From Axinella damicornis (Eukaryota > Porifera > Demospongiae > Axinellida > Axinellidae): a stretch of DNA of 64,000 nt. Position numbers and translations under genes: made by a program. Below the pieces are notes generated by a model that did not search any database, had not been told where the DNA came from, and was given only the letters and a program-made list of their open reading frames with translations. The first letter of the stretch is position 1. Each line of letters opens with the position of its first letter. The stretch is from assembly GCA_963931865.1 (NCBI GenBank), contig OZ007511.1, forward strand, positions 294,836 to 358,835. Direction: 5' to 3'. Positions 484 to 38,814 of this stretch are shown here, one piece after another.

Positions 484-3400
484 CTTTTCCGGTTATCATT
501 GACTTCACTAATGGCACACAAGTGTCCGTGGATGCTGGATCTGGAGACAGCCAAATCTGTGTACAATTCACAGTGAATAGTACTGAGGATACCATTGGAG
601 AGCGAGAGGTTGTGGTCAGCTACACGATGAATGATGACACTGCCACTGGTATGTTGTACTGTGTATAATGCTCTAATGACATCCTCAGTAAGGCATTTGC
701 CACTTTAGTAACTGACTGAGGTTGGAGTTACACTTGTTGGGTCATCTCTCTCTCTCACTCTCTCTCTCTCACACACACACATACCCTGCCCCTCCTTCCC
801 CCCATTCTTCTTTCTCTTTGAAATGCAGGTGGTGAGGACTATACAGCATTCACGGGCAATCTTACGTTCACCAACTCAACCAGGATCAGGTGTATCCCAC
901 TCGATATCCTCCCAGACCGAGGAAACACTGTGGTGGAGGAAGACGAAACCTTCTTTGTTGTCCTCCAAACAGATCAACCAGCAGAAGTAATCTTCGAGAA
1001 CCAGCAAGCGAATGTGACCATTATTGAAACCGATGGTGAGCGGAGAAACCCTTTCCCGTGTTAACAATCTAATTCTGATTGATGCAGTAACCATATACCA
1101 TTGCAGTGATACTATTTACAGTACCTCTCATAAACAATTCTCATTTTTGTGTGTTCCAGTTTGTATTTATGCATGTGTGTTCCAGCATCATAGTGATGCT
1201 GGGTACAACAGGTGATGGTACAAGACATTTGATAATACGGTAATTGAATCTCTCTGCAGTTGCCACAGTGAGCTATGCTAATGCAAGCAATGCACGTGTG
1301 TTCGAAGAGGACGGGGCTACTTCACTGTGTTTCACAGTTGAGACAGCCATTGAGAGAGCAGGGCTGTCACTGCATCTGGCTGTTGACAACAGCCCGGCAA
1401 TGATGATGACATCAACCCGATTTGCCACTGAAAATGGTATGTCAGATCTGTGTGCTAGAAATTATTATTCTCACAAAACCTCCCATTTGAAATGATGCAT
1501 ATAAGCATGATCAGTTTTGATTTCTGAGTAACAGAGAACATCTTGTATGCAATAAGGAAGCTCTGTATACTTGAAGATCAGACTAACGGTGCAGTAACAC
1601 AACGGGCATTCCATCCATATTAAATTGCATTGTAACATCTACCTACTATTTACAATTGTGTAACTGTACATGGGAACTTTCAGTTTCATATTTAAGTTCA
1701 GATCGAGACGTTTCTCATTGTCCCCATATCCTCTTTCCAGTGGACTTCAGTCTCCCGATGGTGTACCTCTCCCTCCCCTCACCCGTATCTGCCATGAGTC
1801 AGCACTGTGTATCCATCAATATCATCGATGATCAGCGGCGGGAGCTGGAAGAATCCTTCTTCCTGTCTGCATCTGGCGGCAGTTTTATCTCAGCACCTGC
1901 AGTTCCACTGGGATTTGTCATCATTGACAATGATGGTACGTTTGATCAGTCAGTATGTCTGTTCTATTGTTTCTCTGTCCATCATTCTGCCTCCGTACAT
2001 CGCACGCGTGATATTTTCCAAACTCCTCTTCCATCTTCATGAGCAGAAAATTAATAAGAATGACAAATTTTGCTTGTGTTCTTTCAAACAGTTGTGTGGG
2101 TTTTCTTTGGAGGGCCATTCTCACGCTCTGTTGGTGAGGGCAGTGGAGAGGTGAGGGTGGAGGTTATGGTGGAGGGAGAGTCAGATGCAGCTGTGACCGT
2201 CACCGTGAGGAGCAGAGATGGCTCGGCAGCTGGGCAAGGTTACTAGCTGCACATTTGTAGATTCCTGTAGCTACGCAGTGAGATTGATAAAATCATTACA
2301 GCACTGTTTCTATTAGGTCTACCCATTCATTGATGTCTGTCAGTATAATTAATGTAGCAATAGTTCTCTACTATCCAGAATTGTTCACTCCGACACCTGC
2401 TCAAAGTTGCCGTGATGGGCAGCTTAGGCTTGGCGATGACAGTGTTGGGTCTGCTGGTGCCTTCTACCATCAGGGGAGAGTGGAGGTGTGCATCAATAAC
2501 ACATACGGAGCAATCTGCGATGTGGGCTGGGACCAGCTAGATGCTCAAGTTGCTTGCCGTGATTTGGGATACAACTCGACAAATTTTGGTAGGTAGACCC
2601 GCATGAATGTTGGCCACTTAGAAAAGGTGAACCCAAGACACACCATAACCGCAAGGTACACTACTCATACTCCTTCAGAAGCACAAGTAGTGAACGGTTC
2701 AAACTTTGGTCCCTGGAATGGCCCTGTCTTCCTGGAGAATGTGATGTGTGCTGGTACCGAAGCGGTTGGGACTGAGTGCCCCACACCTGGTGTGGGGGTG
2801 ATCACTGACCCAGAGTGCAACAACCCTAGTCGAACTGCCGGAGTGCGGTGCATTGCAAGTGAGTTGAGCAAAACAGTCTGTTCTTTGATAACCTTCACGG
2901 GCATTGTAACGTGTTCATAGGTAGATTTATTTGTAGTCAGCCAAGACAAAAGTGCCATGTTCAGCCTGTGATTGACCACTGTATCAGATCGCAACAGAAT
3001 TCGCTATGCAATTGTAACGCCACATTTTGGTGCCTAGACAGGAATGAGCTAGAGTCCTTGAATTACTGGCTATCGGTGCGTATGAATGAAATGCTAAACA
3101 TTTCTACCAATAGGGTCAGCCATTGACTACATCGAAGTTGACAGAGTGGTGACCTTTAGAGTGCTGACCTTTGGGTTTGATCAAGAATTCTCTGGTTCTG
3201 GTCCCGGTTCCGGAGAGCAGATTGCAAGCGAGTCCGTTCTTGTGTCCATTATTGATGATAATGTCTTGGAGGGAAACCAGGACTTCTATATCACACTGGA
3301 AAGCAGCGATGCAGGCGTCGACCTTTCACTCATGAATACGACTGAAGTCACCATTATTGACAATGATGGTATGCATTGCATCTCAAAAATATCATTGTTT

Positions 3401-6059
3401 TGATAACCATGTGACCTCTGTGGGAAGTCATAATGATCCCCCACATAATCTCTTGTCATAGGGGTCACAACATGGTATGGTATAAATCATGTGACCTGGA
3501 TTATGCGACAGTCCGCATTTCAACATACTCTTTTTCCATTGCAGAAGTACGTGTTGCATTTCAGCAGGAAACATACTCGGTTAGGGAGGGCGATGGCAGT
3601 GTGGCCGTCTGTGTGGAGATCTCAGGAGTTGATCTCGACATTGAGTTGACCTTCAATCTGTCTGCAACAATTGACGGATCCGCCGCTTTCTCAGGTATGC
3701 ATGACAGTGTTTGCTATACAGGCAGCTGGCATTGTCCACTCTCCTCACAGCATTGGTTAGCTTCAGATTTCCCAGCATTGCGAGGCAACCTGCATGATGA
3801 AAGGGTGGGACACTTTTGCCATACGACTCAGCTTCAAGAGAGAACCAGACAACCCATGCCATAAGATGTATCCACCAAAAGCCTCCTTTGGCCCCATTTA
3901 CTGTCATTCGTTGATCGCACACTTCAAAATGAATGATCCCATCTTGGGTTAAAGTGCCATATCCTACTCTCTCCCTCCAGCCCTACTCACATTCAGTGGC
4001 GTCACCAGAGTGCAGTGTGTCGATGTGCCTGTGTCCGATGATCAGATAGTGGAGGAGGGAGAGATGATTCTGCTGTCCTTGTCACCAATTAACATGCCCC
4101 TCATGGTGGATCCTGGCTCTGTCACTACTGCTGTCGTCATGGTGATTGATGATGATGGTGAGTACGTGCATGTCTACATAATTATGTGTGTGTTTGTGTG
4201 TGCAGTGATATGTACTTATCTCTATTTGTGTGTGTGTACAGGAAAGGCATTACACGTATGACAAGCACCATTGTTCTTATACCTACTTGCAGTGATCACA
4301 ATCAGTCTTGTTTCTGGAGCTATCTCCCTGGCAGAAGGAGTAGGATCATACTCCATCGAAGTCTCTTACACTGGGCAAATAGCTGCCGGTGTTGGCCCAT
4401 TGAGAGCTCGACTGACGACCCAGGACAGAACTGCAAGCGGTGAGAACCCATTGTGGTTAAACCATTAGACTTCGTGTAAGCAATTATACTCACAACATCG
4501 CAAACCATACCCCTGTAAGTGAGGGAGAGCCTTTCTTGAATGATACCATGAGCTCTGCTAGAATCATTAATCTGTTTTCTTTTTGTTGATACAGCTGGAG
4601 ATGACTATAGTCCAGTAAGTACGGAGCTCAACTTCACCGGTAGGTCCCTTCCGGGTGGGGTCAACATCACAGCTGCTACGGTTACCATCATAAGTGACAA
4701 CATTGTTGAGAGAGATGAGCAATTTCAGATTGTGCTGGAAGTCTCCGACAGCCGTATTTCATTTCCTGGAAATGGGAACACCTCCACAGTGACCATACTC
4801 GATGACGACAGTAAGTGGGTTTAATGCCCCTGTAGTATAACTCCTTTACATTACTGCCTGGCAACGATATGAATATCGTGCATCATTGAACGTTACCAGT
4901 ACTATATAAAATGCAAGTGTGTGCAGCTAGAATTTTTTCTCCTTTAGTATGTTCATAGCTATATAGCAAAAGGCACAGCACAACTCGTGTATATCAAACT
5001 GCATGTGGCCTATACTCTGTCCCTCACAACTGCACGCGGCCTATTCTCTGTCGCGGCCTATTCTCTGTCCCTCACAACTGCATGCGGCTTATTCTCTGTC
5101 CCTCACAACTGCACGCGGCCTATTCTCTGTCCCTCACAACTGCACACGGCCTATTCTCTGTCCCTCACAACTGCACGCGGCCTATTCTCTGTCCCTCACA
5201 GCTGTGGATGCGAGTTTCTCTGAGACTAATGTCACGGTAATGGAGGGGAATGGGAGTGTCACCCTCCAGCTGTCTTTGATGGGGGAGCTTGATAGCAGCA
5301 TTTCAGTGAGTGTGCAGGTGCAATCACGAGATGGAACGGCCACTGGTGAGTCAGAGGTTGAGACTGGATGGTTTAATCAGACCTCAATCACAAGCTGTCA
5401 GTGTGATCCAACAGTTGCTGGTCTTTAATATCAAGCCTGTTCATTTCTCTCCTTCAGCTGCGGCTCCTGGTGACTACACCGCCCTCATGAGAACCCTCAC
5501 TCTCACCAGCTCCTCAACCATCTCCATAGCAATCTCCGATGATGTTGTTGTTGAAGACGATGAACAGTTCACGGTCGTGCTGAGCAGCTCTGACCCAAAC
5601 GTCATGACATCAGTCATGCAAACAACGGTGACCATCGCCGACGATGACAGAGGTGTGTATGGTTTAGAATAACTATAGGACAGCATATCATAATTATGCT
5701 ATATGCAGTCTATACCAATAGCATCTAGCTACAACTTGTGTATTACACAAATATTACGTGCCCACCTTAATGTCAGGTATTGAGCTCTTTTTAACTCCTC
5801 CCAGCTAACTGCTTGCATCCTATAGCAGATAGTATAGTGATCATGATGGTCCGAATTTACACAAATCTTTTTACACTTTTATCCAGCTGTTCGTGTTCAA
5901 TTTGAGCAGACAAATTACAACGTGTCTGAGGGTGACGCTACTGTAACCATTTGTGCAGTAGTGGACTCCATTCTGGAGAGAGACGTTAACATCACTGTCA
6001 GAACCTGCGTTTTAGCTGACAGTGCAACAGAAGGAGGTACGTAGATGGTGGAGGAATAA

Positions 6060-6092
<33 letters not shown>

Positions 6093-9000
6093 GACACCAT
6101 TAATCCATATACTTATAGAGCTCCACTTGATCATGATATGCATCATGTACTTCTATAAGTAGTGTGCTCAAACTAAACGACCTGCAGCTAATTTCAGGAA
6201 TAGGTTACATCTTGAAGAATTGCACGACCTTGTCAATACTAGTATGCCATTGGGCCCGTGGCAGAGGAAGTACTTGTATGCATTATTGTTTCATAATGAA
6301 TTTCTGAGCATAAATTATTACTGTAACACCGATGAACATAGTCTGAGCGTAATAACATCATTATGTTTACCACGTGGACACATTTCTCCCTTCCTCTCTC
6401 TCTCTACCTCCCTCCACTCTCTCTCAACCACTAAAGTGGATTACATGGACCCCATCCCTGGACAACTCAGATTCAGTTCCATAGCCAGTACACGCCAATG
6501 CTTCACAGTGGCCATCACAGATGACAACATCTTTGAACGGTTGGAAACATTCTCCGTGGGACTATCCTCTAGCGATCCAAATCTGACGCTGGTGGGACCT
6601 GGTGGTGTGGTAACTGCACTGGTTGATATCATTGATAACGATGGTAAGTTGAAATCAAACACTGGCTGTACTTTATAGCTAGCTAGTTGGCTGTGCTCAA
6701 CAATAGGATGCAAATGATATGGTAATGAGTAGAGTTCTCTTAATCCCTGTCCTTCCCAGTTGTGAGTGTGGATTTCACTGAGTCTGCAGTCATGGTAACA
6801 GAGGGAGACGGAAGTGTCACTCTTACTGTCTCTGTAACTGGGCAGCTGAGTCCTGCGGTCTCAGTCAGTGTGTGGGTGGCCACGATGGATGGAACTGCCA
6901 GTGGTGAGAACCTGTGCTAGCTGCTTAACAAATTTAACTTTGCTTCAAACTTTGAATAGAGTAGTCACTGTCGTACAGACTTTGCTGCTGTTCAAGATGT
7001 TCCCTATCCTTCAGCTCCAGGTGACTACTCTACACTCAGCAGCACTCTCACCTTCACCAGCTCCACAACCATGAGAAATGTTTCCATAGCAATCTTCAAT
7101 GATGCAGTTGTAGAAAGAAATGAACAGTTTGCAGTTACGCTGAGTAGCTCTGACCGGAACGTCATCACATCGGCTAACCCAGCAGGTGTCTCCATCAGCA
7201 ATGATGACGGTACGTACCACATGCACAGTTTGTCCATTGCTACTTACTGATGCGAGTACTCTAGCAGAGGAACAAAACTTGTGCATATCATACGGCCTAT
7301 TCTCTGTCCCTCACAGCTGTGGATGTGAGTTTCTCTGAGACTAATGTCACGGTAATGGAGGGGAATGGGAGTGTCACCCTCCAGCTGTCTTTGATGGGGG
7401 AGCTTGATAGCAGCATTTCAGTGAGTGTGCAGGTGCGATCACGAGATGGAACGGCCACTGGTGAGTCAGAGGTTGAGAAGCTGTCCACTGGATGGTTTAA
7501 TCAAACCTCACTTTCAAGCTGTTAGTGCTATCCAACAGTTTCCGGTCTTTCAAGACTGTTTATTTCTCTCCTTCAGCTCCTGGTGACTACACCGCCCTCA
7601 TGAGAACCCTCACTCTCACCAGCTCCTCAACCATCTCCATAGCAATCTCCGATGATGTTGTTGTTGAAGACGATGAACAGTTCGCGGTGGTGCTGAGCAG
7701 CTCTGACTCAAACGTCATCATATCAGTCAACCAAACGACGATCACCATCGTCAATGATGATGGTACGTTACCCCATCATAGCCAAGAGTTCTTTCTCGTA
7801 GTATAATGATGATGGTACGTTACCCCATCATAGCCAAGAGTTCTTTCTCGTAGTATAATGATGATGGTATGTTACCCCATCATAGCCAAGAGTTCTTTCT
7901 CGTAGTATAATGATGATGGTACGTTACCCCATCATAGCCAAGAGTTCTTTCTCGTAGTATAATGATGATGGTATGTTACCCCATCATAGCCAAGAGTTCT
8001 TTCTCGTAGTATAATGATGATGGTACGTTACCCCATCATAGCCAAGAGTTCTTTCTCGTAGTATAATGATGATGGTACGTTACCCCATCATAGCCAAGAG
8101 TTCTTTCTCGTAGTATAATGATGATGGTACGTTACCCCATCATAGCCAAGAGTTCTTTCTCGTAGTATAATGATGATGGTACGTTACCCCATCATAGCCA
8201 AGAGTTCTTTCTCGTAGTATAATGATGATGGTACGTTACCCATCATAGCCAAGAGTTCTTTCTCGTAGTATAATGATGATGGTACGTTACCCCATCATAG
8301 CCAAGAGTTCTTTCTCGTAGTATAATGATGATGGTACGTTACCCCATCATAGCCAAGAGTTCTTTCTCGTAGTATAATGATGATGGTACGTTACCCCATC
8401 ATAGCCAAGAGTTCTTTCTCGTAGTATAATGATGATGGTACGTTACCCCGTCATAGCCAAGAGTTCTTACTTGTAGTATAATGTTTCAACATAACCTACT
8501 GTTTCCCCCTCCCCCCTTCACTCCAGACCCCTGCACCCCATCACCCTGTGACCCTAACGCTGTGTGCATGAGTGAAGATGGAGGGAACTTCACCTGCACC
8601 TGCATACCTCCATACATTGGTGATGGTTTCACATGCACAAGTAAGTGTGTTCTCAGTAATAGCTCTGAGTGTGTACCAGACTGGTGTATACTTACCATTG
8701 CATTGCCACTAATTGTTATGTTTTTAGAAAACCAATTTTAATGTGTTCTAAAGTGTGTACATGTATCAATGCTAGAAGAGATGCATACCTATAGCCATGT
8801 CTGAACCACAATCACCGTTTCTCTCACCTTATTAGGGATGATGATGGGAGATGACCCTCACTTCAGTGTGGTGCTGCCGAGCGAAAAACTCTTGTGCTTC
8901 TCAGTACAGGGGGACCACAGCCTTAGCTACAACCTGATCAGCAATAGAATGCTGCACATGAATGCCATTTTCATTCCCGATTCCCGGAGAGAAGAGGTTA

Positions 9001-9790
9001 CATGGATTGGTTCATTGGGCATCATGGTTGCTGACTCATCTGCTAAAAGAGTGAACGAAACCAGCTTGTTGTTCGAAATTAAATCCCAGAGAGTTACCAT
9101 TAATAACAAGGTGAAGCTCATCGCCAAGAACATTGACAAGATAACGATATCAAATGGAAAGCTTAGCATTTCAGAGGCACCCCGATTCCAAGGTTTCCGA
9201 TACCCAAAGGTTCTTGTCAATCTGGATGATGCCGGTCTAAGGTTCACTGTGATGTTTAAGAACGAGCATCTTGATATGTTCTGGCACAGCACTGGACAGC
9301 AGAATGAAGACTCACACGGGCTGATTGGTGAGCTATCACATTTCCCATGCACATCCGCATGTAGTGCTATGATTGTCGATAGTTTCCAAAGGCATTATAC
9401 AAAGTGGATTAGTGTATTGTCCACACACTGTAGTGCAATGAGATTGTCTAGCTGCTGTGCATTGACAAGCCAGTTCAACATCTTCCTCTTCTCTCTTTTC
9501 TATCTAAAGGTCAGTTCTTCCGGAAGGGAGTTGAGGTTGATACAGTGCGTAAGATCCTGATCCTGCCTGCCAAGGAGCCGGTGCCTGTGATGCGTCGTCC
9601 CGTGTGGAGCTTCATGGAACGTGAGGTGGCTGATGACCAGCTCTGCTGGACCGCCATGAACCCAGGCTACCAGGGAGAGGGGCTCATCGAGGGAGTTCAC
9701 AAAGACTATATAGTGGAGAATGTGCTTGACAGCGGTTTTGTGTTCAAACATCAGCCACTGACATCCAAACATCAGACTCGGTTCCTATAG
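484..9790 (+). CDS. Gene A (5' partial): secreted protein with nine Calx-beta domains, SRCR, EGF and ITIH_C
   Basis: Exons: 484-648, 829-1035, 1260-1436, 1741-1935, 2092-2238, 2379-2588, 2679-2858, 3114-3368, 3545-3694, 3981-4157, 4293-4439, 4595-4810, 5202-5345, 5458-5652, 5887-6036, 6437-6643, 6760-6903, 7015-7209, 7317-7460, 7577-7762, 8527-8640, 8836-9327, 9510-9790 (TAG). All junctions are phase 1 and the join stays open for about 1491 residues. First-half Calx-beta exons end in patterns like DGTATG; second halves carry GDYT, then DD..VE.DE.F and end in acidic DND/DDD, which in this family helps bind calcium. The third Calx-beta is split by an SRCR domain (residues about 297-427). One EGF (six Cys, about 1197-1234) precedes an ITIH_C domain (about 1235-1491) containing GDDPHF and HGLIGQFF. 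No membrane segment follows, so a secreted or matrix protein is inferred. Exon 10 encodes a shortened second half that lacks the usual DY start. The N-terminus is outside the window. Function is unknown; sponge aggregation-factor-like adhesion is possible. Confidence 0.85.
2379..2858 (+). other. SRCR domain exon pair inside a Calx-beta domain of gene A
   Basis: Two exons (2379-2588 and 2679-2858), separated by a 90-bp intron, encode one scavenger receptor cysteine-rich domain. It opens with SCRDGQLRLG and continues with GRVEVC, AICDVGWD and VACRDLGY. The second exon holds ENVMCAGTE and ends at GVRC. Eight cysteines are visible. The upstream exon (2092-2238) is a first-half Calx-beta and the downstream exon (3114-3368) a second half, so the SRCR pair sits at the ordinary mid-domain intron position. 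The acceptor at 2678 was chosen because it keeps phase 1 and follows a pyrimidine tract. Confidence 0.8.
5010..5201. repeat. 31-bp tandem repeat of a 3' splice-site sequence
   Basis: About six copies with starts near 5041, 5058 (short), 5089, 5120, 5151 and 5182. Each contains CTATTCTCTGTCCCTCACA, which is the polypyrimidine tract and near-acceptor of the following exon (5202). In the upstream copies the AG is changed to AA; only the last has CAG. The near-identical exon at 7317 has one unit only. Confidence 0.9.
6060..6091. repeat. Poly(G) tract, 32 nt, in an intron of gene A
   Basis: An uninterrupted run of 32 G lies 24 bases after the exon ending at 6036. Possible G-quadruplex former on the RNA sense strand, or a length artefact of sequencing. 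Confidence 0.9.
7755..8470. repeat. 52-bp minisatellite that repeats the 5' splice site of gene A exon 20
   Basis: About fourteen near-identical copies, period 52 (GGTACGTTACCCCATCAT occurs at 7762, 7814 and so on). The first copy overlaps the end of the exon 7577-7762, so every unit contains GATGATGGTACGTT, that is the exon end plus a good donor. One copy near 8230 lacks a C and two have GTATGT instead of GTACGT. Confidence 0.95.
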
Positions 9791-10987: not shown

Positions 10988-11444
10988 GGCCAGTTCTTCT
11001 GGAAGGAAGTTGAGATTGAAACAGTGTTTGATCCTGGGTGCTCATTCGCATATTCCAGAATAGCACCCAATACCCTGGGGTGCTTCAGTGGTTCCCATGG
11101 TAACCTTCATATAAAGTCATGCAGGTTGACACAATATAGTGACAGTCAGTTTCTGGGAGCAAAGACCATTCCCTTTCCATGCATAGAAAGTCCGTTTTAC
11201 ATCACGGTTACCATGGAAACCACTGTGTAACACCCCATGGTGATATTCTGGAACATGTGATGTGTCGTCCCGTGTGGAGCTTCATGGAGCGTGAGGTGGC
11301 TGATGACCAGCTCTGCTGGACCACCATGAACCCAGGCTACCAGGGAGAGGAACTGATTGATGGAACCTAGTTAGCTACTTTAAATGGGTAGCCTACCTCG
11401 TCATGACATCCTCTCCACTAACTTCAAATTCAAGAAGCAACAGT
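10988..11444 (+). pseudogene. Relic of an ITIH_C last exon, interrupted by a foldback element
   Basis: The segment from GGCCAGTTCTTCTGGAAGG (10988) matches the start of the last exon of genes A to D. The homology breaks at about 11023 and resumes at about 11257 with the conserved stretch encoding CRPVWSFMEREVADDQLCW. It then has a premature TAG at 11368-11370 and a degraded end that still ends in AAGAAGCAACAGTAG. No EGF or first ITIH_C exon precedes it. It is a broken duplicate of the gene's 3' end; the 3' flank (see 11660-11740) is also conserved with genes C and D. Confidence 0.85.
11049..11256. mobile_element. Foldback (MITE-like) insertion in the relic last exon
   Basis: The left end (about 11049-11105, CATATTCCAGAATAGCACC to GTTCCCATGGTAACC) is an imperfect inverted repeat of the right end (about 11206-11256, GGTTACCATGGAAACCACTG to TATTCTGGAACATG). 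The arms are about 50 bp around an interior of about 100 bp. It sits exactly where the relic exon is interrupted. No coding capacity. Confidence 0.65.
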
Positions 11445-13826: not shown

Positions 13827-13861
<35 letters not shown>

Positions 13862-26200: not shown

Positions 26201-29200
26201 CCCTGCATCCTCCTCTCTGTCCCTCCATCCTCCTCTCTGTCCCTGCGTCCTCTTCTCTGTCCCTGCGTCCTCTTCTCTGTCCCTTCATCCTCCTCTTTGT
26301 CCCTGTGTCTTCTTCTCTCTCCCTGCGTCCTCCTCTCTGTCCCTGCGTCCTCCTCTCTGTCCCTGCGTCCTCCTCTCTGTCCCTGCATCCTCCTCTCTGT
26401 CCCTGCGTCCTCCTCTCTGTCCCTGCATCCTCCTCTCTGTCCCTGCATCCTCCTCTCTGTCCCTGCGTCCTCCTCTCTGTCCCTGCATCCTCCTCTCGGT
26501 CCCTGCATCCTCCTCTCTGTCCCTGCGTCCTCTTCTCTGTCCCTGCGTCCTCCTCTCTGTCCCTGCATCCTCCTCTCTGTCCCTGCGTCCTCCTCTCTGT
26601 CCCTGTGTCCTCCTCTCTGTCCCTGTGTCCTCCTCTCTGTCCCTGCATCTTCTTCTCTGTCCCTGCGTCCTCCTCTCTGTCCCTGCGTCCTCCTCTCTGT
26701 CCCTGCATCCTCCTCTCTGTCCCTGCATCCTCCTCTCTGTCCCTGTGTCCTCCTCTCTGTCCCTGTGTCCTCCTCTCTGTCCCTGCATCTTCTTCTCTGT
26801 CCCTGCATCCTCCTCTCTGTCCCTGCATCCTCCTCTCTGTCCCTGCGTCCTCCTCTCTGTCCCTGTGTCCTCCTCTCTGTCCCTGCATCTTCCTCTCTGT
26901 CCCTGCATCCTCCTCTCTGTCCCTGCATCCTAATCTCCGTCCCTGCGTCACTCAAATTAGAGTTATATCTACTGAACTATAGCTAGAGAGTTGGCACCGC
27001 ATATTATAGCTCATGAAACTCAGTCTTGTCCTGCCAGTTGCCTGCACTAATTCGGTGAGTGGAATGAAAGTATACACATCCTTCTTTTGACCTTGATGAT
27101 CTGCAGGTGGTGTAGACTATGGTTCCATCACATGCAACCCTCTTGTGTTCTCTGGCACTGACAGCCAGGAGTGCTGCAACATCCCCATCAATGATGACCT
27201 TCTCTGTGAGGGATCAGAGTTCTTCACTGTCTCCCTCAGTGCAGCCAGCGCCGGTGTTATTGTGGGCTTTCCTTCAACTGCTACTGTCACCATTGCCGAC
27301 AATGATGGTAAGTTATTCCACAAAGTGTTCAACACAAGGCTTGCAGTTTTTCTGTGAATAAATACGGTTGAAAAATAATGAACTGCTTGTGATGTTGGTG
27401 AGATAATTACTCCATGAGAGAGCAAATACTGTGCTGAGCAACTTACTGCCTCATTCCCAGGCTGTTCTCCCACTTCCAATCTTTGATCGCTTGTGGGAAG
27501 GCCTGCCCTGGGAGATCTGCATGGTCACATGCGGTCGACGTCAGGTAGACAGATGGTATAGAGATATATACGCAGGGGGTGATGCCTGATGAAGAATCTC
27601 GAAGGCCATAGCAATCAAAGGGCAGTATCAATACCGTTCGTTGTTCACGATGCAGGGAATTAAAATTACAGACTTACACACACAGTTACAGAAAGACTAA
27701 TTACACTCATTCATTTCACTGCAGCTAAAACTGTTGCCACTGATCAGCCCAGCTACACTGTCACAGAGTGTGAAAATCCTCAGTTGGACTTCGGTGTTGT
27801 TATTAATGGGCAGCTTGGTCCGGGCCGTTCGTGTGTTGTCATAATCACAATCATTCCTGGCACTGCTGTGGGTAAGTAACACATCATAGATTCTATAATA
27901 CATTGACAGCCTTCATTCTAGTTCAAGACATTAAGTGGCAATTTGGTAACTGGTGGTTAGCTATTATTTATGAGCTACTATGTAGCAGTCTGCATTGACA
28001 GCTGCATGTGGTGTGTGTGTATTTCTATATAGAGCATGGTTTGTTGGTGACCATCAGTTTATACTAGCTACAACATGAGCGAGCGAATAGCTGTACTGAG
28101 CAACTCATTGCTGTGCACATGAAACCAGGAAAGTATCAGTATCATAATCTACATTGAAACTGTGTGACATACATATTACCATCTCTTTTATCGACATCAT
28201 CACTTCATGATTTTATTGCAGCTGGAGAGGACTATGATGACGGCGTCTTGTCTAGTCCTTCTGTTGTATTCCAATCTGGTTCAGTTGGTCGCATGCCACG
28301 GAGCATCAACATTCTTGACGATCTTGTCTTTGAGCCAACCAAGTATTTCAATTTAAGCCTGAGCACCAATAGCCCTGATTGTATCATCCCCAATCCGCTT
28401 GTCCGAGTCACAATCCTGGATGATGGTGAGGATGAGTTACAGCAGTTGTTGAATATCACTGCATGTGTAAAGGTTACAGCTTCTGTCACTGTTGAATGTG
28501 TAATTCAGTTGCTGTCGTTGTTGAATGGTTACAGCAGACACCGTATTGCGTAGTTTTGCATGGGAAGAGAGTTTGATCCATTAAGAAGTACATCAACTCA
28601 CTACCTTGTTCTACACTGCTCATACAGAGGACTGTACAGGTGTGGCCGGTATGCCATGTGATGAGAACGCCATGTGCGAAGAGCTCCCCAAACAGAATAA
28701 CTTCACCTGCACCTGCATCCCCCCATATATGGGAGATGGATTCATGTGCTCTCGTGGTGAGTATCCATGGTAACCAGCAGTAACCTCTATCTGCCTGGAC
28801 CTCCTCCTTTATGTTCTTCTTTTTGCGGTGAGGCATGTACTGAATGCAATTGTGCCTACTTTCCAGCTTCTGTCGGAGACGACCCCCACTTCAGCATAGT
28901 TCTTCCCAGTGGCAAACTCCTCTGCTACACGGTGCAAGGAGAACATGGCTTTGTCTTCAACCTCATCAGCAACAAATTGTTCCACATGAATGCCATGTTT
29001 GTGCCCGACTCACACAGAGAAGAGGTCACCTGGCTGGGCTCAATGGGCATCATTGTGCAGAACAGCCAGTACAAAAACTCCAATGCCACCTATCTGAGGT
29101 TTGAGACAAAGGGCAAGAAGATCTACATTGGGGACAAAGTTACACTGCAAGCAAAGAACATTGAGAAACTGAGCTTCACCAAGGGGAAGATGACCGTCTT

Positions 29201-29726
29201 AGAGGCTCCACCTTATGAAGGCTTCAGGTATCCATCAGTACTGGTTGACCTTCGAGATGTGGGCCTTAACTTCACCATCAAATTCCTGAACGAGCATTTA
29301 GATCTATTCTGGCACAACACTGGAAGACGTATTAAAGAGTCTCATGGACTAATTGGTGAGTCACGTTTTATGACAATGTTCAAAGTTATCCTTAGCTTAA
29401 GTTGATTAAGGGTATTATTCTTCACCACACCACCATACTATAACACTGCTCTCTCTTCTCCACACATGCATACAGGCCAGTTCTTCCGGAAGGGAGTTGA
29501 GGTAGATACAGTGCGTAAGATCCTGATCCTGCCTGGCAAGGAGCCGGTGCCTGTGATGCGTCGTCCCGTGTGGAGCTTCATGGAGCGTGAGGTGGCTGAT
29601 GACCAGCTCTGCTGGACCGCCATGAACCCAGGCTACCAGGGAGAGGGGCTGATTGATGGAACCTACTTTGACTACCTCGTGAACGACATCCTCTCCACTG
29701 ACTTCAAATTCAAGAAGCGACAGTAG
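23230..29726 (+). CDS. Gene C: secreted protein, four Calx-beta domains, EGF and ITIH_C
   Basis: Exons: 23230-23305, 23485-23640, 23844-24059, 24510-24683, 24776-25006, 25663-25806, 27107-27307, 27725-27871, 28222-28425, 28628-28756, 28867-29355, 29476-29726 (TAG). All introns are phase 1; 805 residues. Exon 1 is a signal peptide (core LAIALVMAVVL, likely cut near TQGQ). Exon pairs 2-3, 4-5, 6-7 and 8-9 each encode one Calx-beta domain. Exon 10 is an EGF with FTCTCIPPYMGDG. Exons 11-12 are ITIH_C, with GDDPHF about residue 565. The last Calx-beta, EGF and ITIH_C exons are very close to those of B and D, while the earlier Calx-beta exons differ, so the 3' half looks recently shared or homogenised. 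The intron before exon 7 holds a 1.08-kb 20-bp minisatellite. An extracellular role is inferred; the ligand is unknown. Confidence 0.9.
25046..25160. repeat. Two-copy direct repeat in an intron of gene C
   Basis: Sequences around GTACAAACAAGCTCCCCCCC occur twice (about 25078 and 25122) with a similar GTTCTGAGAG lead-in. Confidence 0.6.
25868..26950. repeat. 20-bp minisatellite, about 54 copies, in an intron of gene C
   Basis: The unit CCTGCGTCCTCCTCTCTGTC repeats in an almost unbroken 20-bp register for 1.08 kb, with G/A and T/C variants. It is strictly pyrimidine-rich on the plus strand. The period is not a multiple of three and the unit lacks stops, so long frames open on both strands; they are not genes. 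It sits about 60 bp after the exon ending at 25806. Confidence 0.97.
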
Positions 29727-30015: not shown

Positions 30016-30105
30016 ACAATCCAAAGATGCTGTCATGGAGTTACAACATGCAGAAATGCATGTATACCAGTTGCCTAATATGCACCCAATACGAAGACAG
30101 TATGA

Positions 30106-30640: not shown

Positions 30641-30750
30641 TCAGGTCTCTTAGCTGTTTTAGAGACTTGAGGGGTGCTACCTATAATCACCAAGGGTGAT
30701 TACAAGTACATCCCAAAGCTGTTTAGAGACCTGATCAGCTGATGCATGCA

Positions 30751-30924
30751 GGCCAGTTCTTCTGGAATGGAACATTGGAGTTGAGATTGATATACTGAGC
30801 ATAATAAACCTATCCCACCTGGTAAGAGCTTGCCTGTGATGTGTCGTCCCGTGTGGAGCTTCATTCAGCAAGAGGTACGTGGCTGATGACCAGCTCTGCT
30901 GGACCGCCATGAACCCAGGCTGTA
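30751..30924 (+). pseudogene. Second relic of an ITIH_C last exon
   Basis: GGCCAGTTCTTCTGGAATGG opens a decayed copy of the last exon of genes A to D. It has small insertions, for example GTAC in the AGAGGTACGTGGCTG region, and in-frame stops. It still contains the stretches encoding RPVWSF and DQLCWTAMNPG. The homology stops near 30924. It has no upstream partner exons. Confidence 0.85.
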
Positions 30925-31300: not shown

Positions 31301-31500
31301 NNNNNNNNNNNNNNNNNNNNNNNNNNNNNNNNNNNNNNNNNNNNNNNNNNNNNNNNNNNNNNNNNNNNNNNNNNNNNNNNNNNNNNNNNNNNNNNNNNNN
31401 NNNNNNNNNNNNNNNNNNNNNNNNNNNNNNNNNNNNNNNNNNNNNNNNNNNNNNNNNNNNNNNNNNNNNNNNNNNNNNNNNNNNNNNNNNNNNNNNNNNN
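31301..31500. other. Assembly gap (200 N)
   Basis: Exactly 200 unknown bases. The 5' part of gene D (signal-peptide exon and first-half Calx-beta exon, at least) is not present on either side, so it is presumably hidden here, in which case the true gap is likely to be larger. Confidence 0.95.
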
Positions 31501-31588
31501 GGGAGCGGCCCGACTGCCTGGGTTGATTTGTTCAACTGACACTGTAATGTATGAACATTGCTTCCTAACAATCTTCAATCCCTTATAG

Positions 31589-34500
31589 CCGTATCAGCCG
31601 TTGACTACACTGCAATCAACCAGGCCCTCAGCTTCCCCTCTGGTGCGGCTGTAGGCAACAGTCTTGGAAGACAGTGTCTCTTTGTCCAGACAACTGAAGA
31701 TTCTACGCCAGAACCTGACGAGACCCTGCAGCTCAGCCTCACCTCAGGCAATACTGCTGTCCTCGGTGTTCTGGCTGGTCGGGGGACAGCAACAGTGACC
31801 ATTCAGGATGACGATGGTACGTGCCACTGTGGAGCTATGAGTCTAACAATCACAACAGACACATGCAAATCTGTTGCCATGCAACAGCAATTTGTACCCA
31901 TTTCATGCTATGCATTATCATCTTGATTGTACAGTACCTGAATTATGTCCTTACTCCATACAACTGCAAGTCACATCTGAACATGTTGTGCTGAGTATTC
32001 CTAGTGCATGTTGCCATGCCGACTGAAAAATAATCAGAAAACAGATGCCTCCATTTCAATAATTATGGTGTGAGTATTAGATGCACTATGTACAAGATAA
32101 CACATGAATGTATACATGGACTGTTCTAGCGCTCTCTCCCTATCCCTGTTTGCAGAGTCGGAGTTTAGCTTTCAACAATCAACATACAGCGTTATTGAAA
32201 ACGTTGGCACTACGCAAGTTTGCATTGAGCTAGTGATGGGAGTCGTCAGCCAAGCTACTCCAGTGACCATTGTGAGTGTCGCTGGAGGGACTGCCACAGG
32301 TATCTCGTTATTACTGCAAAATTTAGCTCAGTAATATATATAGTTCAATGCACACAGGAGCAACTGAATAGCAAGATAATGCTAGTTGCAAGATAATGCT
32401 AGTAGCTACAGAGGTTGTCCTAGCTGACTGGCTCAAAGGTTCTTGTATCTGAAACTGCTGGTGTCACCGTCCATCCTATACAGCTCCCTCGGACTTCACT
32501 GCAGTGTCAACCACGGTCACATTTCCCGCTGGCAGCAGCAGTGGGCCTCCAAGAGCTTTCCAGTGCGCTCCTGTCACCATTACTAATGATGCTATCGTTG
32601 AAACCCGCTTTGAATCGACCCAGCTCAGTGCATCATCCAGTGCTCCAAATGTTGTGTTCACTGCTGGGGGGAACGTTGCCAGTCTTCAAATTGAAGATGA
32701 TGACAGTGAGTTTGAGCACACCACTGATGACGTGCACTATATGTAGTTACAAAACAACTTGTGTGTACCTCACAAATGAGAGTCGATACAGATCTGTGAA
32801 AAGCAAGGTTCTCACTCTCCGTACACCATGCATGCCTGCCTCAAGGCGATGATGTATTCTATCCGATATTCATAAAGCACAGTCCGTACATCGAACGTTG
32901 CTGCAAACGGTGCACAGGGTAAGTGCTCTACTGGGCACTCCTTGTTACAAAGGTTGTTTTAATTATGCGCTGGTGGATGGAAAGTATCCGCAAGGTAAGA
33001 GTATTTAAAGCAAGGCATAAGGCATCATTGAGTTTGCCCAACCATTTGCTCTACCAGGAGGGCAGTTGCCACTTTAACTAAGTCCAATAGGAGTTGCTTA
33101 ACACCTCTAGCAACTGTCAATATTCCAGTTTGCAGCAGCAGAGGGTGACCTGTTGATTGCTAGTGCCTGTAGCTTGTCTGGGGAGAGAAGGGGCACTGGG
33201 ACTAGCCTACCCTCTCATACGACCAGACGATTGCCACATGACACTAGCTAGCCTCGGACCCAGCACCACATCTTACTGTCAATCACCTTGTCTTACCCTG
33301 TACAGGTATCATAGTTGGCTTGGTGCCGGATCCTGGTACGGGAACACCAAATTACCGGATCCCCGAGGCCAGTGGACCATTGCAACTCTGCGCCCAGATC
33401 ACCAACGGCTTTCTTGCACCAGGAAGGACGGCAGTCGTGACCCTGACCACACAGGCAGGCGTACCACCGAGTGGAGCCTCTGGTATGCACGACAAGTTTA
33501 TTTCAGTGACAATACACTAGCATGGGTTTACCCCCCATGACATACTGCAAGCTTTGTGTGGAGAATGACACGTCCTTCAGTTGATGAGGAACTCTAACCC
33601 CAGCCAGGCTAGCAGCTGTGTGTATGTCTCTGAGCTCTTTAATTCTGTGACACTGTATGGTAGCTCAATAATTGTAGTGCACAGAAAAACTCTAGCTGTA
33701 GGTATGTTTATGAAGCTTGGCTTGTGTTCGCACATGCAACAACACTCTCCTCCCCCCACCACCCCTCCGTTTCTCCCCCTCCCTCCCCTCCCACCCTCTC
33801 CTCCCACCCTTGGTCCTTCCTCCCTCCATGTACCACTGGAATATCATGGTATTCGGTATGGTACCTGTCATAATTGAAGTCTTAAGAGACAGGTTCCAGA
33901 GAGAATCTAGGAATTCCACCAACAGGTTTCTTTCCTGCTAGTCCTATTAAGATCTCATTACCTTGCAGAGTCCCTATAAAGTTGCTGGTTTGTTCCTTAA
34001 TTGTTGTTATGACATCAAATTATTAGGGCTAAGATTAGTATTTTCTTGTAATCTGTAGTATTCTCTCTTGTAATCTCTTGTAATCCCCATGCCTGATGAG
34101 GAGTGTATGGGTTACTGTACCACACAAAGCCTGTTTCCTATAGTGTTAGACTACAGAGGCTATATACTCTACGTTAGCATAAGTTATCCCATTAGTGCAT
34201 GTGGTCATACTACAACTCATCCTCTCTTGAGTAATCTCAGGGTTCTCATGCATGAACCATTATTGTGGTCACAGTAAGCTCTAGTAAGCTCTAGTAACTT
34301 GACAGCTAGTGTTCGCATGAACCATTATTGTGTCACATGCACTGCCTTCATGCTTGTAGCTAGTTAGTGGTATTAAATTTTGTTAAAATACGATATCTGA
34401 GTGTGATAAAGAATAGTCTATGTACAAAACCAGTTTACCCTATGTTTTAACCCTTAGGCTGCAGGTCTCACATATGCTGTGGCTAACTCACATCCCCCCC

Positions 34501-37500
34501 CCCCCCCCCCCCCCCCCCCTCCCAGACCCACAGGACTTTGGTGGCGGAGCCTTCCCGCTCGTGTTCACTTCTGCAACCGGTCAAAACAACCCAGTTTGTG
34601 TGCCAGCAGGAGATGTTCGGATTACAAATGACAACACCTGTGAAGCAGATGAGACCTTCTCTATTGCACTGAGTACCCAGGCCGGAGAGACGCAAGTCAA
34701 CCTAAACCCTCAGACTGGAACTGCAACAATCATTGATGACGACGGTAATTTAGCCAACCATCCTCGATGATGATTGATTTAGCCAACTGCTAAATAGCAA
34801 AAAAATTAATTTCCAGCAAATTCACAACTAAGGTAGGGCGGGGTAATTCAGGCCACGGTATAGTACGGGGTAATTCGGGCCACTTCAACGTTGCAACAGG
34901 AAAGATGCATCCTTTTTATTCTTGCTTCTAGTGAGTTGTAGGCAGGTTGAGTCCCTGGATATACATGGCCAGAAGTTTGCCTAAAGTCTGTCCGTTTTTA
35001 GTTACCGTTGACCTGAAGTTGAAGTGGCCCGAATTACCCCGTGGCCCGAATTACCCCGTGGCCCGAATTACCCTGCCCTACCTTATTTAGCAAACATGTA
35101 TACTGCTTCACACTTGAATATTAGCTACAATGTTGGACCCTATGGAATAGGTGCTCTTAAGGTTACGATGAACAGTTAGGAGGCAGCTGTCAGTTTGTTT
35201 ACATAAAACAATGAGATAATGTTATTCATAGCGGAAGCGGTACATGTAAACGCGGTACAAACTCAATTAACAACAGACTAATGAGACCTTACAGTATTTG
35301 AAACCTTGCGCCAAATATAACGAAGGGAAATTGTTTCTCATGAATTTTGACTTGCTGCACGTGTAGCCTGATGTATTTTGCAGGGCGGCACGAAGCGATA
35401 TCACGAAATTGGGGCATAAAACGGAGGCTATGCATGCCTACAGAATGCTCATCCTGGCTGAACCGGTAAGTTTTTGTACATGTAGCTAAACGTAGACACA
35501 GATCGCCGAATATCTCTTCGTCACGACCTAGCAAATACTATGTACTAGTGCTGGAGAATTTTTGAGGGTTGGGCTACCCTCTGCCTCTCAGTAATTTGGC
35601 GCAAAAGCGCTTGTACAGTGAGTCTATTTGCCTAGGTCCAAATGCCTTGAGGCATTTTACTTTCCTGTTCCAGGTGTTCATACTTCTTTCATGTAGTGTT
35701 GGAAAATTGGAATGCAACTTGTTTCGGATTGATATCTGTTATAGTTCCTGAGATATAAAGCGGCAAAGTTACCAGCAAAAACATTTATCGAATTGTACAT
35801 CGTAACCTTAAGGTAGGAAGCACGGCATCGGCGAAATCGCGCAATTTTGCTCATGAATAATTAATGAGATGACATCACTCGCATTCATCTGTTTACGTTT
35901 TCCCATGGCGGCAACCGGAATAAACAAGATGGGCTTCTCTCTTTGATGCGGCTAGCGGCCCTTTCAAGTTTCAAATCGGTACTCTGATGTGGCCGTGCGG
36001 TACTTTGAAGATTTGTTACAACACTCTTTTTTAGAAGCTATTCTAGCTTATTGAATGTAGCGATGGGCTATCTGAGTGTGAATAGCTAGGTGGAGTGAGC
36101 AGGAATGTTTGTGGGTCTGCTGAAGTGGCCGAAGAACAGCCTGGAAAGTGAACAGCATCTGACAGCTCCCTGGCCAAGGTACTCTAGAGAGTTGACCTTT
36201 CGGCATTACAGGCCCCGCCCATTTTCATGTTAGGGCGAATTTGGTAACTGGACTGGGCTGGTGAGAGGGAGTAGATGTGTGGCCAAAACTCTGTGACCGA
36301 GAGGTGAACGTGGAAAAGCATCCCTAGTTTTGCAGGGGGTAGGTTGACCTTTTGAAGAGCTTGAGTCGGTTTTAGTTGGTGTGCGTGGAATTTTTTTTGA
36401 AAGCCTAGGGTAGCCAAACCTCTGTTTTTGAGGGTGGCAGTGAGTTTTGGGCTGTAACCTGCAAGTGAGGAGAGCAGGTGGTAAATCCATCCGTAATTTT
36501 TGGGCCTGTTTTGTGTGTGTATTGATGATGGGGTCAGAGTGTGGGTGGGGCCTTGGAGAGGGTCCAAATTTTCAGTTTCGTAGAGGGCCTTAAAATTGAG
36601 TTTTAGGGCATTTTCAAGCAGAGGGTGCAGTTTGATGCAAAGTATTGCTGAAACTTGTGTACACTTTGATGCTGCCCATTTGTCCATCAACTTGGTTTCG
36701 GAGATCGCAGTACCCATGTTTCCTACCTTAAGCAGTAGGTAGTGTTTAATACCATCGATTCACTGTTGTATACTTGCAGCTAAGACCGTTAGCTTTGACA
36801 TGCCGAGCTACACTGTCACGGAGGGTGAAGATCCTCAGTTGGACTTCAGTGTGAATATTTCTGGGAGCCCTGGTGTGGGTCGTTCATGTCTTGTCACAAT
36901 CACAACCGTTCCAGACTCTGCAGAGGGTAAGTGACCAGATGTGGGATTATAAGTGTGTACTATAATATATTATACAACCCTAGGTGCTATATGTTTATAC
37001 GGGGTATGGTTTGGATTTGTCAATTTTGTTTTCTGTGATAGTTGTGAACATGATGGCTGCTTGAAATGATAGGCTTGTATGAACTACGCCATATGAAACA
37101 CCCTATAGATAGCATAGTTTAATAGGCATACTAGAATGCAGGGCTTGTATGACATATCATATCGATTCCACCTCCTTCAATATATATCACTTCCGGTTCC
37201 TTTTTCTAATCTCAGCTGCCGAGGACTATGATGCCAGCGTTATGCCTACTCAGTTTGCCACCTTCTCATTTGGCTCAACTTCACCCATGGATCGGAGCAT
37301 CAACATTATTGAAGATCTTGTCTTTGAGCCAACCGAGTCTTTCAATTTAAGCCTGAGCACCAGTAGTCCTGATTGCATCATCCCCAATCCGCTTGTCCCA
37401 GTCACAATCCTGGACGATGGTGAGGATGAGTTACAGCAGCTGTCATTGCAAATAACATCTGTTGGAAATTACAGCAGCTGTCAGTGTTTCAGTGTGTATT

Positions 37501-38814
37501 GAGCTACATGGAGGACTGGGCTCAGTGGGGTGTAACACATTCTGTAATGGAGTTTAAGATTTTGATTTTGGAGGAGAGTTAATTTGCTTAAGCACATCAA
37601 CTCATTACCTTGTTCTACACTGCTCATACAGAGGACTGCACTGGTAGGGATCGTATGCCATGTGATGAGAACGCCATGTGTGAAGAGTTCCCTCGACGCG
37701 ATAACTTCACCTGCACCTGCAGTCCCCCATATACGGGAGATGGATTCATGTGCTTTCGTAGTGAGTATCCATGGTAACAGCAATGTGCATTAATTTCCAA
37801 TCTACATAAAGTTAGAACGTTTTGTAAGTGCTATGAAATAGCTACTGCAAGTTCTCCATGAAGCACTATTAATGATGAATTAATAACTTTCCAGTTTCGG
37901 TCGGAGACGACCCTCACTTCAGCATAGCTCTTCCCAGTGGAAAACTCCTCTGCTACACGGTGCAAGGAGAACACGGCTTTGTCTTCAACCTCATCAGCAA
38001 CAAATTGTTCCACATGAATGCCATGTTTGTTCCTGACTCACGCAGAGAAGAGGTCACCTGGCTGGGCTCAATGGGCATCATTGTGCAGAACAGTCAATAC
38101 AAGCAATCCAATGCCACCTATCTGAGGTTTGAGACAAAGGGCAAGAAGATCTACATTGGGGACAAAGTTACACTGCAAGCAAAGAACATTGAGAAACTGA
38201 GCTTCAACAAAGGGAAGATGACCATCTCAGAGGCTCCACCTTATGAAGGCTTCAGGTATCCATCAGTACTGGTTGACCTTCGAGATGTGGGCCTTAACTT
38301 CACCATCAAGTTCCTGAATGAGCATTTGGATCTGTTCTGGCACAACACTGGGAAACACACTAAAGTGTCTCATGGACTAATCGGTTAGTTTATTCACATT
38401 TCCACCCAAATTGAGTGTTGGCAAGTTTTGAGTTGACCAATTGATCTGCTTGCATTAGAAGGGTACACATGTGGTGCATAAGTCAGTCTCATGTTCTTTG
38501 TATACTACAGTATACTACACCCACTAAAGCAATCATTTCTCTCTTCTCCACACATGCATGCAGGTCAATTCTTCCAGAAAGGAGTTGAGATCGATACAGT
38601 TCGTAAGATCCTGATCCTGCCTGGCAAGGAGCCGGTGCCTGTGATGCGTCGCCCCGTGTGGAGCTTCATGGAGCGTGAGGTGGCTGATGACCAGCTCTGT
38701 TGGACTGCCATGAACCCAGGCTACCAGGGAGAAGGACTGATTGATGGAACCTACTTTGACTACCTCGTGAACGACATCCTCTCCACCGACTTCAAATTCA
38801 AGAAGCCACAGTAG
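31589..38814 (+). CDS. Gene D (5' end in gap): Calx-beta repeats, EGF and ITIH_C
   Basis: Exons: 31589-31816, 32156-32299, 32484-32705, 33306-33482, 34526-34744, 36780-36926, 37216-37419, 37632-37760, 37895-38383, 38564-38814 (TAG). All junctions are phase 1; 735 residues are visible. The first visible exon is a second-half Calx-beta (VDYTAINQALSFPSG, ending QDDDG), so its first half and the signal peptide are missing. Three complete Calx-beta domains follow, then EGF (FTCTCSPPYTGDG) and ITIH_C (GDDPHF, HGLIGQFF, GLIDGTYFDY). The last five exons are very close to those of gene C. The acceptor at 34525 follows a 26-nt poly(C) run. The intron 34745-36779 has swelled with transposon-like elements, and the donor after 38383 is GTTAGT rather than GTGAGT. 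Confidence 0.88.
34494..34519. repeat. Poly(C) tract, 26 nt, forming the polypyrimidine tract of a gene D acceptor
   Basis: A run of 26 C followed by TCCCAG and the exon at 34526. The homopolymer takes the place of the normal mixed pyrimidine tract. Confidence 0.9.
34829..35085. mobile_element. MITE-like foldback element with GGTAATTCGGGCCAC repeats
   Basis: The left end TAAGGTAGGGCGGGGTAATTC is mirrored by the right end, which reads GGCCCGAATTACCCTGCCCT then ACCTTA. Each end also has internal copies of GGGGTAATTCGGGCCAC (two on the left; three on the right, inverted). Length about 257 bp, no coding capacity. Inserted in an intron of gene D. Confidence 0.75.
35157..35811. mobile_element. TTAA-flanked element 1
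   Basis: TTAA (35157-35160) is followed by GGTTACGATG; the other end is CATCGTAACC followed by TTAA (35808-35811). The inner element is 647 bp with perfect 10-bp terminal inverted repeats. TTAA target duplication is typical of piggyBac-like transposons. No transposase is visible, so it would be non-autonomous. Confidence 0.65.
35808..36731. mobile_element. TTAA-flanked element 2, sharing a TTAA with element 1
   Basis: It starts TTAA-GGTAGGAAGCA and ends TTTCCTACC-TTAA (36728-36731), giving imperfect inverted ends of about 10 bp around 916 bp. The ends resemble those of the 34829-35085 element (GGTAGGGC). It contains the minus-strand frame at 36184-36717. Confidence 0.6.
36184..36717 (-). CDS. 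Unrecognised 177-residue open frame inside TTAA element 2
   Basis: A continuous minus-strand frame starting MGTAISETKLMDKWAASKC and ending just inside the element, reading away from its right end. I do not recognise the protein; no catalytic triad, zinc-binding cluster or membrane segment stands out. It begins 10 bp from the element terminus, as transposon-encoded proteins often do, but chance openness in a 0.9-kb element is possible. Confidence 0.25.
   Translation of the reverse strand: MGTAISETKLMDKWAASKCTQVSAILCIKLHPLLENALKLNFKALYETENLDPLQGPTHTLTPSSIHTQNRPKNYGWIYHLLSSLAGYSPKLTATLKNRGLATLGFQKKFHAHQLKPTQALQKVNLPPAKLGMLFHVHLSVTEFWPHIYSLSPAQSSYQIRPNMKMGGACNAERSTL

What the first reader, a model, noticed from the sequence alone, without database searches (positions are those of the whole stretch)
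484..38814. Tandem family of Calx-beta(n)-EGF-ITIH_C genes, an apparently undescribed architecture
Seen: four same-strand genes and two relics, all ending in EGF plus an ITIH_C domain and differing mainly in number and type of Calx-beta domains (9, 2, 4, at least 3.5). Known: vertebrate ITI heavy chains join ITIH_C to VIT and VWA, not to Calx-beta, and sponge aggregation-factor core proteins are built on Calx-beta arrays. Inference: this is a clustered, fast-changing family of extracellular matrix or cell-adhesion proteins, possibly related to self-recognition.
Basis: partly seen in the sequence, partly recalled or inferred. Interest (0 to 1): 0.88.

Follow-up and report, generated by a model that had tools for sequence, protein, structure and literature searches.

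The report
Sponge matrix proteins with self-cleaving caps

The parts
484..8640 (+). Gene A ectodomain: 9 Calx-beta domains, SRCR on exons 2379-2588 and 2679-2858, EGF exon 8527-8640; continues upstream of the window with two cysteine-rich (LDLa-like) exons
   Evidence: gene models; Pfam; exon 1702-1935 may start later than modelled
8836..9327 (+). Gene A cap exon 1 (VWD-like core); Asp-Pro-His codons begin at 8853
9510..9790 (+). Gene A cap exon 2 and stop
10988..11376 (+). Relic of a cap exon 2, in more than one frame
15004..16754 (+). Gene B: two Calx-beta domains (exons 15004-15171, 15335-15589; 15998-16141, 16551-16754)
16916..17050 (+). Gene B EGF exon
   Evidence: 28.1 bits, just under cut-off 28.5
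17487..17981 (+). Gene B cap exon 1; Asp-Pro-His codons begin at 17507
18102..18352 (+). Gene B cap exon 2 and stop
23248..23305 (+). Gene C first exon, signal-peptide-like (by eye)
23485..28425 (+). Gene C: four Calx-beta domains (exons 23485-23640, 23844-24059; 24510-24683, 24776-25006; 25663-25806, 27107-27307; 27725-27871, 28222-28425)
28628..28756 (+). Gene C EGF exon
28867..29355 (+). Gene C cap exon 1 (489 nt); Asp-Pro-His codons begin at 28881
29476..29726 (+). Gene C cap exon 2 and stop
30812..30920 (+). Relic of a cap exon 2
31589..37419 (+). Gene D: second half of one Calx-beta plus three full ones (exons 31589-31816; 32156-32299, 32484-32705; 33306-33482, 34526-34744; 36780-36926, 37216-37419); 5' part missing next to the 200-N gap 31301-31500
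37632..37760 (+). Gene D EGF exon
   Evidence: 31.8 bits
37895..38383 (+). Gene D cap exon 1; Asp-Pro-His codons begin at 37909
38564..38814 (+). Gene D cap exon 2 and stop

Best explanation
These are secreted, modular matrix proteins made of a variable calcium-binding Calx-beta rod plus a self-processing C-terminal cap. The cap is a VWD-fold domain of the ITIH C-terminal type. SHOWN: architecture (as gene models, with database proteins of the same build), phase-1 modular exons, ITIH_C relationship of the family, VWD fold (on a relative's model), conserved Asp-Pro-His at the cleavage position, the same cap on unrelated front parts. INFERRED, likely (about 0.75): during secretion the Asp side chain attacks its own backbone carbonyl and the chain breaks between Asp and Pro. 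Both conserved cysteines of the cap lie after the break, so nothing obvious holds the pieces together and the front part would leave with a new C-terminal Asp. INFERRED, about 0.4: as in HC1/HC2, that Asp is joined as an ester to a glycan, so different ectodomains are displayed covalently on matrix polysaccharide. Adhesive or recognition specificity would come from the Calx-beta array; a role in individuality is speculative (about 0.15).
Against: No biochemical or RNA evidence for this species. The window's own caps are below Pfam's cut-off. The residue before the Asp is Asp in the window genes (17 of 28 own copies; Leu in 6, Gly in 5), not the Gly of canonical GDPH, whose cis Gly-Asp bond favoured cleavage-ready shapes in the FCGBP simulations. 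The Gln near the scissile bond in FCGBP has a possible counterpart in 22 of 28 own copies, His in 6 (equivalence by sequence, not by coordinates). Profile comparison with this genome's own VWD exons was weak (E 0.037 and 0.079). No Link-domain (TSG-6-like) gene was found, but that search was silent in all controls. DPH is only 3 of many invariant columns, so its conservation alone does not prove catalysis. The structural model is of a relative, and its first residues are weaker (block 21-30 mean pLDDT 68); a model of the multidomain relative P0002 failed (pLDDT 42.6).
Confidence: 0.6

Rival explanations
1. The cap cleaves itself but only to mature or stabilise the protein, as reported for the GDPH VWD domain of FCGBP; no ester to glycan is made and the cap may stay attached non-covalently.
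For: Same fold and scissile position as FCGBP; in FCGBP cleavage raises stability and protease resistance (PMC10880436 passages).
Against: Cap length and family are those of the ITIH pro-domain that is shed on glycan attachment; the conserved cysteines both lie after the cut.
Confidence: 0.3
2. The genes encode aggregation-factor core proteins: Calx-beta rods of the large sponge adhesion proteoglycan, working in species or self recognition.
For: Calx-beta arrays in a sponge-type genome; aggregation factors are calcium-dependent proteoglycan-like complexes with a multimeric core protein and many long glycans (PMC7828597 passages); Calx-beta changes faster than the cap in 5 of 7 pairs.
Against: No VWD Pfam match in genes A-D; the aggregation-factor gene paper (Grice 2017) is not held, so its Wreath domain could not be tested; many more Calx-beta exons lie elsewhere, for example C7:2.75-2.99 Mb.
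Confidence: 0.15
3. Secreted pattern-recognition or immune proteins: SRCR, LDLa-like and fast-changing Calx-beta modules bind microbes; the cap is a generic secretion tail.
For: SRCR in gene A; dN/dS of 0.65 to 0.99 in the last Calx-beta of B, C, D.
Against: Only gene A has SRCR among the four; no dN/dS estimate exceeds 1, and relaxed constraint would give the same; the cap's conservation (dN/dS 0.12 to 0.30 for B, C, D) argues for a specific function.
Confidence: 0.15
4. Artefact of ab initio joining: Calx-beta exons are not really spliced to the cap.
For: No RNA data for this genome; models come from my own simple exon chainer with some borders set by eye.
Against: Database proteins P0002 (584 aa) and P0012 (H. 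panicea) join Calx-beta to the cap, and P0011 (1858 aa, 12 Calx-beta plus cap) is an open frame on a 5,834-nt contig, too short to hold introns and so transcript-like, whose chainer had no phase preference, 46 of 47 joins were phase 1.
Confidence: 0.03

Closest known systems
[quoted passage not shown]
   Same: C-terminal domain family ITI_HC_C; Asp-Pro-His (GDPH reported in ITIH3, 5, 6); pro-domain length 239/244 against a median of 240; VWD-like fold predicted for both
   Different: Heavy chains are (recalled) VIT-VWA-ITIH_C; genes A-D have Calx-beta and EGF and no VIT or VWA. Some other cap genes of this genome do have VWA_4, but VIT matches lie elsewhere
GDPH-type VWD domains (FCGBP, MUC2, MUC5AC, MUC4, RGMB)
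   Same: Fold, and for FCGBP the position of the Asp-Pro bond
   Different: No PF00094 match in A-D; Asp, not Gly, before the Asp in the window genes; the cap is C-terminal and shared between unrelated proteins
Sponge aggregation factors (MAFp3/p4 type)
   Same: Calx-beta arrays in a sponge; presumed extracellular and calcium-dependent
   Different: ITIH-type cap and EGF instead of the VWD and Wreath domains recalled for aggregation factors; identity untested
Halichondria panicea LOC135336475 (P0002), LOC135347821 (P0001), LOC135343434 (P0012), named uncharacterized
   Same: Same cap (57 and 60% identical to gene C's for P0002 and P0001; 53% to gene A's for P0012) on Calx-beta-EGF, Reeler-Sushi-Calx-beta and Calx-beta-Ig front parts
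   Different: Different numbers and kinds of front domains

Membership tests
ITIH heavy-chain family | ITI_HC_C C-terminal domain | tested here: met
   Met for the family: 12 of 12 caps match at E up to 10, best 1e-5; P0020 and P0033 at or over the cut-off. Window proteins themselves sub-threshold
ITIH heavy-chain family | N-terminal VIT domain | tested here: not met
   No VIT match in A-D (A and D lack their 5' ends in the window); VIT exons lie elsewhere in the genome
ITIH heavy-chain family | VWA domain | tested here: not met
   None in A-D; present in the two C14 cap genes scanned (VWA_4) and, by eye only, at C7:790k
ITIH heavy-chain family | Asp-Pro-His cleavage site at the start of the pro-domain | tested here: met
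   28 of 28 own copies held, 119 of 120 listed relatives
ITIH heavy-chain family | Ester of C-terminal Asp to a glycosaminoglycan | not testable with these tools
   needs biochemistry
VWD domain family (PF00094) | Pfam VWD profile match | tested here: not met
   No PF00094 match in A-D at E up to 1 nor among the 12 caps at E up to 10
VWD domain family (PF00094) | VWD fold | tested here: met
Sponge aggregation factor | Calx-beta array | tested here: met
   9, 2, 4 and 4 stretches
Sponge aggregation factor | VWD domain (recalled from Grice 2017) | tested here: not met
   but the cap has the VWD fold
Sponge aggregation factor | Wreath domain (recalled) | not tested
   no model held; paper not held
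Calx-beta proteins | Calx-beta profile with calcium-binding acidic ends | tested here: met
   Pfam; NCX1 matches in the PDB, E 2.3e-10; acidic cluster at the end of all 19 second-half exons (17 by pattern, A 5458-5652 and B 15335-15589 by eye); calcium binding itself not testable

The most novel reading that the evidence does not exclude
Sponges use the ITIH-type cap as a general covalent-display module: dozens of unrelated ectodomains (Calx-beta, VWA, Ig, NIDO, Reeler) are cut at Asp-Pro and esterified to matrix glycans, and exchangeable Calx-beta arrays give the matrix individual-specific adhesion. The vertebrate heavy-chain/hyaluronan system would be one surviving use of an ancient animal chemistry.
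Probability: 0.25. Interest if true: 0.92.

Novelty: new variant of a known kind. Interest (0 to 1): 0.74.

Why it matters
Covalent attachment of a protein to a polysaccharide through a C-terminal Asp ester is described for vertebrate inter-alpha-inhibitor (passages). A sponge family of at least 46 cap exons with the same kind of pro-domain and an Asp-Pro-His in every copy read would suggest that this chemistry, or its machinery, is older than the VIT-VWA heavy chains. It would also give a testable route by which sponge adhesion proteins could be joined to their glycans. Pfam's ITI_HC_C model scores most of the family members tested here below its cut-off, so such proteins stand in databases as uncharacterized.

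Tried and rejected
Whole-genome six-frame search with PF06668 found nothing, and its controls were silent too: uninformative. PDB sequence search with the cap profile gave only a chance VgrG match, E 5.7. NCBIfam gave one chance match, E 0.15. hhalign of the cap against two of this genome's own VWD exons was weak (E 0.037 and 0.079). Prokaryote genome scan with the cap: 60 pattern stretches, none a relative. Structure of the multidomain relative P0002: pLDDT 42.6, not used. Intron identities printed come from gapped global alignments of unequal introns and are not used. Aggregation-factor membership could not be settled because the key paper is not held. Cap lengths were cut short for some copies and were recounted to the stop; for 42 database relatives one search gave a median of 251 (236 to 295), some visibly with intron read-through. 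Rows left out: A1 holds 7 of the 28 own and 5 of the 9 database caps, among the window genes only A and C; the tree holds 31 rows; A3 holds 58 rows, 54 database proteins and 4 window exons. dN/dS: 7 pairs passed the filters in the script (at least 40 Calx-beta codons, Calx-beta dS below 1.2); they share genes and are not independent; gene A was left out as saturated; 617k/627k (0.39 against 0.16, bootstrap 0.11) and 735k/738k (0.22 against 0.22) show no significant contrast.
Full report
WHAT IS THERE. The window lies at C7:294836-358835 of an unnamed 226-Mb genome; the genes read as sponge, since the only named homologs seen are from Halichondria panicea. I chained exons with codon and splice scores and then set some borders by eye. 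Four + strand genes result: A 484-9790, B 15004-18352, C 23248-29726, D 31589-38814. Calx-beta domains are split over two exons each; EGF sits on one exon and SRCR on two; the cap takes two exons (489 to 495 nt and 251 to 281 nt). All 48 introns of the final models are phase 1. Since I set some borders with that phase in mind, the fairer count is, whose chainer had no phase preference: 46 of 47 joins, the odd one a spurious first exon of D that I dropped. Pfam gives 9, 2, 4 and 4 Calx-beta stretches in A, B, C, D, SRCR in A and EGF_3 in each, B's just under the cut-off (B without its last exon). Gene A continues left of the window with two cysteine-rich exons that look like LDLa (by eye). D's start meets 200 N at 31301-31500. 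Relics of cap exon 2 lie at about 10988-11376 and 30812-30920.

IS THE CAP AN ITIH_C DOMAIN? For the window's own proteins the match is sub-threshold: 17.3, 16.6 and 17.0 bits for A, C and D against a cut-off of 27, none for the truncated B; the gene C cap alone gives 19.4 bits, E 0.00088. For the family it is convincing: 12 of 12 caps (7 own, 5 database) match ITI_HC_C at E up to 10, best 1e-5, and no other family is matched by more than one member. A profile search of 5.8 billion proteins gave 400 relatives at E up to 10, of which 120 were listed; two of these, P0020 (52% identical to the gene C cap over 98%) and P0033, which share a long nearly identical stretch, reach the curated cut-off with 27.3 and 27.0 bits. 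Of the ten relatives scanned four showed ITI_HC_C at E up to 1; six, among them the close relative P0013, did not. In one search two of six own-genome proteins showed it at E up to 0.05; of the other four, one lacked cap exon 2 and three had whole caps. In one search two of six database proteins showed it at E up to 0.01.

CONSERVATION. D, P and H are each present in 28 of 28 own-genome caps held (of 46 located) and DPH[FY] in 119 of 120 listed relatives; the exception, P0056, begins after the motif, and one of the 120, P0049, is the window's own exon. What precedes the motif differs with the front part. The preceding residue is Asp in 17, Leu in 6 and Gly in 5 of the 28, so strict GDPH is the minority form. 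The conserved cysteine pair lies wholly after the Asp-Pro bond, so a cut would free the ectodomain. After the Asp the cap measures 240 residues in B, C and D, 250 in A, and a median of 240 (235 to 252) in the 27 own copies with both exons. PMC7170535 (passages) gives 239 and 244 residues for the pro-domains that HC1 and HC2 lose when they are attached to chondroitin sulfate; PMC4661386 (passages) states that the bond is an ester between the C-terminal Asp and a C6 hydroxyl of GalNAc.

A LARGE, SWAPPED CAP FAMILY. One search of the own genome with the gene C cap gave 110 exon matches, a lower bound, of which 46 by my count are near-complete first exons, on nine contigs: C7 (16), C14 (8), C3 (6), C13 (6), C5 (3), C9 (3), C10 (2), C1 (1), C68 (1). 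Three of the C3 exons belong to a 5,999-bp unit repeated with almost no difference, perhaps an assembly artefact. Where I hold enough sequence, the chained models show different front parts: Calx-beta with or without EGF (C7), VWA-like by eye at C7:790k, VWA_4 (C14, two genes scanned), NIDO-TIG (C10; several joins of that model are not phase 1, so this join is the least sure), Ig (C3), Calx-beta x3 (C3), EGF (C1). On C3 an Ig-bearing and a Calx-beta-bearing model have nearly the same cap. Such swapping fits the uniform intron phase. VIT domains, a mark of true heavy chains, occur in this genome but megabases away from the cap matches.

EXPRESSION AND OTHER SPECIES. P0011 is an 1858-residue open frame on a 5,834-nt JGI contig with 12 Calx-beta, LDLa and the cap: too little room for introns, so very probably a transcript. 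H. panicea has Calx-beta x2 - EGF x2 - cap (P0002), Reeler-Sushi-Calx-beta-cap (P0001) and Calx-beta-Ig-cap (P0012). No relative was found in the prokaryote genome scan.

EVOLUTION. Among B, C and D the last Calx-beta has dN/dS 0.65 to 0.99 and the cap 0.12 to 0.30; over seven usable, non-independent pairs five show the contrast (bootstrap fraction 0.008 or less) and two do not. In 735k against 751k, Calx-beta dS is 0.12, EGF 1.42 and cap 0.62: neighbouring modules have different histories, as expected from exchange or conversion. No estimate is above 1, so relaxed constraint explains the data as well as diversifying selection.

HOW IT MOST LIKELY WORKS. Secretion; folding of the VWD-like cap; attack of the Asp side chain on its own carbonyl; break before Pro; ectodomain ending in Asp. 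By analogy with HC1/HC2 the activated Asp may be taken by a glycan hydroxyl. The genome has CHGN-family genes (recalled as chondroitin-synthesis enzymes), nine long exon matches, so a chondroitin-like acceptor is possible. A Link-domain search found nothing but was silent in its controls. The Calx-beta rod, related to the NCX1 calcium-binding domains and with acidic ends in all 19 second-half exons of A-D (17 by pattern, two by eye), would bind calcium. Architecture, family and fold are shown; cleavage is likely; coupling is plausible; self-recognition is only conceivable.

WHAT IT IS NOT. It is not filed as an ITIH heavy chain (VIT and VWA tested and not found in A-D) nor as an aggregation factor (no VWD profile match in A-D, Wreath untested; Grice 2017 not held). 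It resembles the ITIH pro-domain in sequence family, motif, length and predicted fold.

LITERATURE. Searches for sponge with Calx-beta and inter-alpha-trypsin (0 papers), PF06668 / ITI_HC_C with Porifera or Calx-beta (7 papers, none with PF06668) and ITIH heavy chain with sponge terms (10 of 915 listed, none of the ten with the ITIH term) showed no description; on aggregation factors and sponge Calx-beta showed none in what they listed. Only CC0, CC BY and CC BY-SA papers are in that library. The papers cited for content were seen as passages, not whole.

Noticed in passing
window 7753-8483: Minisatellite of 14 copies of a 52-bp unit that contains the end of a Calx-beta exon of gene A and its splice donor; 12 places keep the exact exon-end/donor string, so gene A may have a row of alternative donors.
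   Followed up: partly
G000 C3:18641000-18659000: Tandem copies of a 5,999-bp unit carrying the cap exons, 99.98% identical: a very recent duplication or an assembly artefact.
   Followed up: partly
G000 C7:2.2-5.2 Mb, C6:4.60-4.65 Mb, C13:8.6-10.2 Mb: Many Calx-beta exons (150 of 2049 candidates scored) in intervals where one search lists no cap match; candidates for the real aggregation-factor genes.
   Followed up: no
window 40135-49224 (-) and 46942-62310 (+): By eye a Rab-type GTPase gene and a Sin3-like gene next to the cluster; not profile-tested.
   Followed up: no
window 19629-20957 and 25869-26949: A 57-bp x 23 array between genes B and C, and a 20-bp x 54 C/T-rich array inside an intron of gene C.
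   Followed up: no
G000 C14:7.22, 7.35, 7.36, 7.88 Mb: VWA-type models with ITIH-type caps (two of the four profile-tested, VWA_4), closer to the vertebrate heavy-chain layout than the window genes but with no VIT match in those two.
   Followed up: partly
G000 C3:7528277, C3:6584337, C12:10407488 and others: The best VWD matches of this genome span about 489 nt of one open frame, the same size as cap exon 1; the C3:7528277 one has GDPH at its start.
   Followed up: partly
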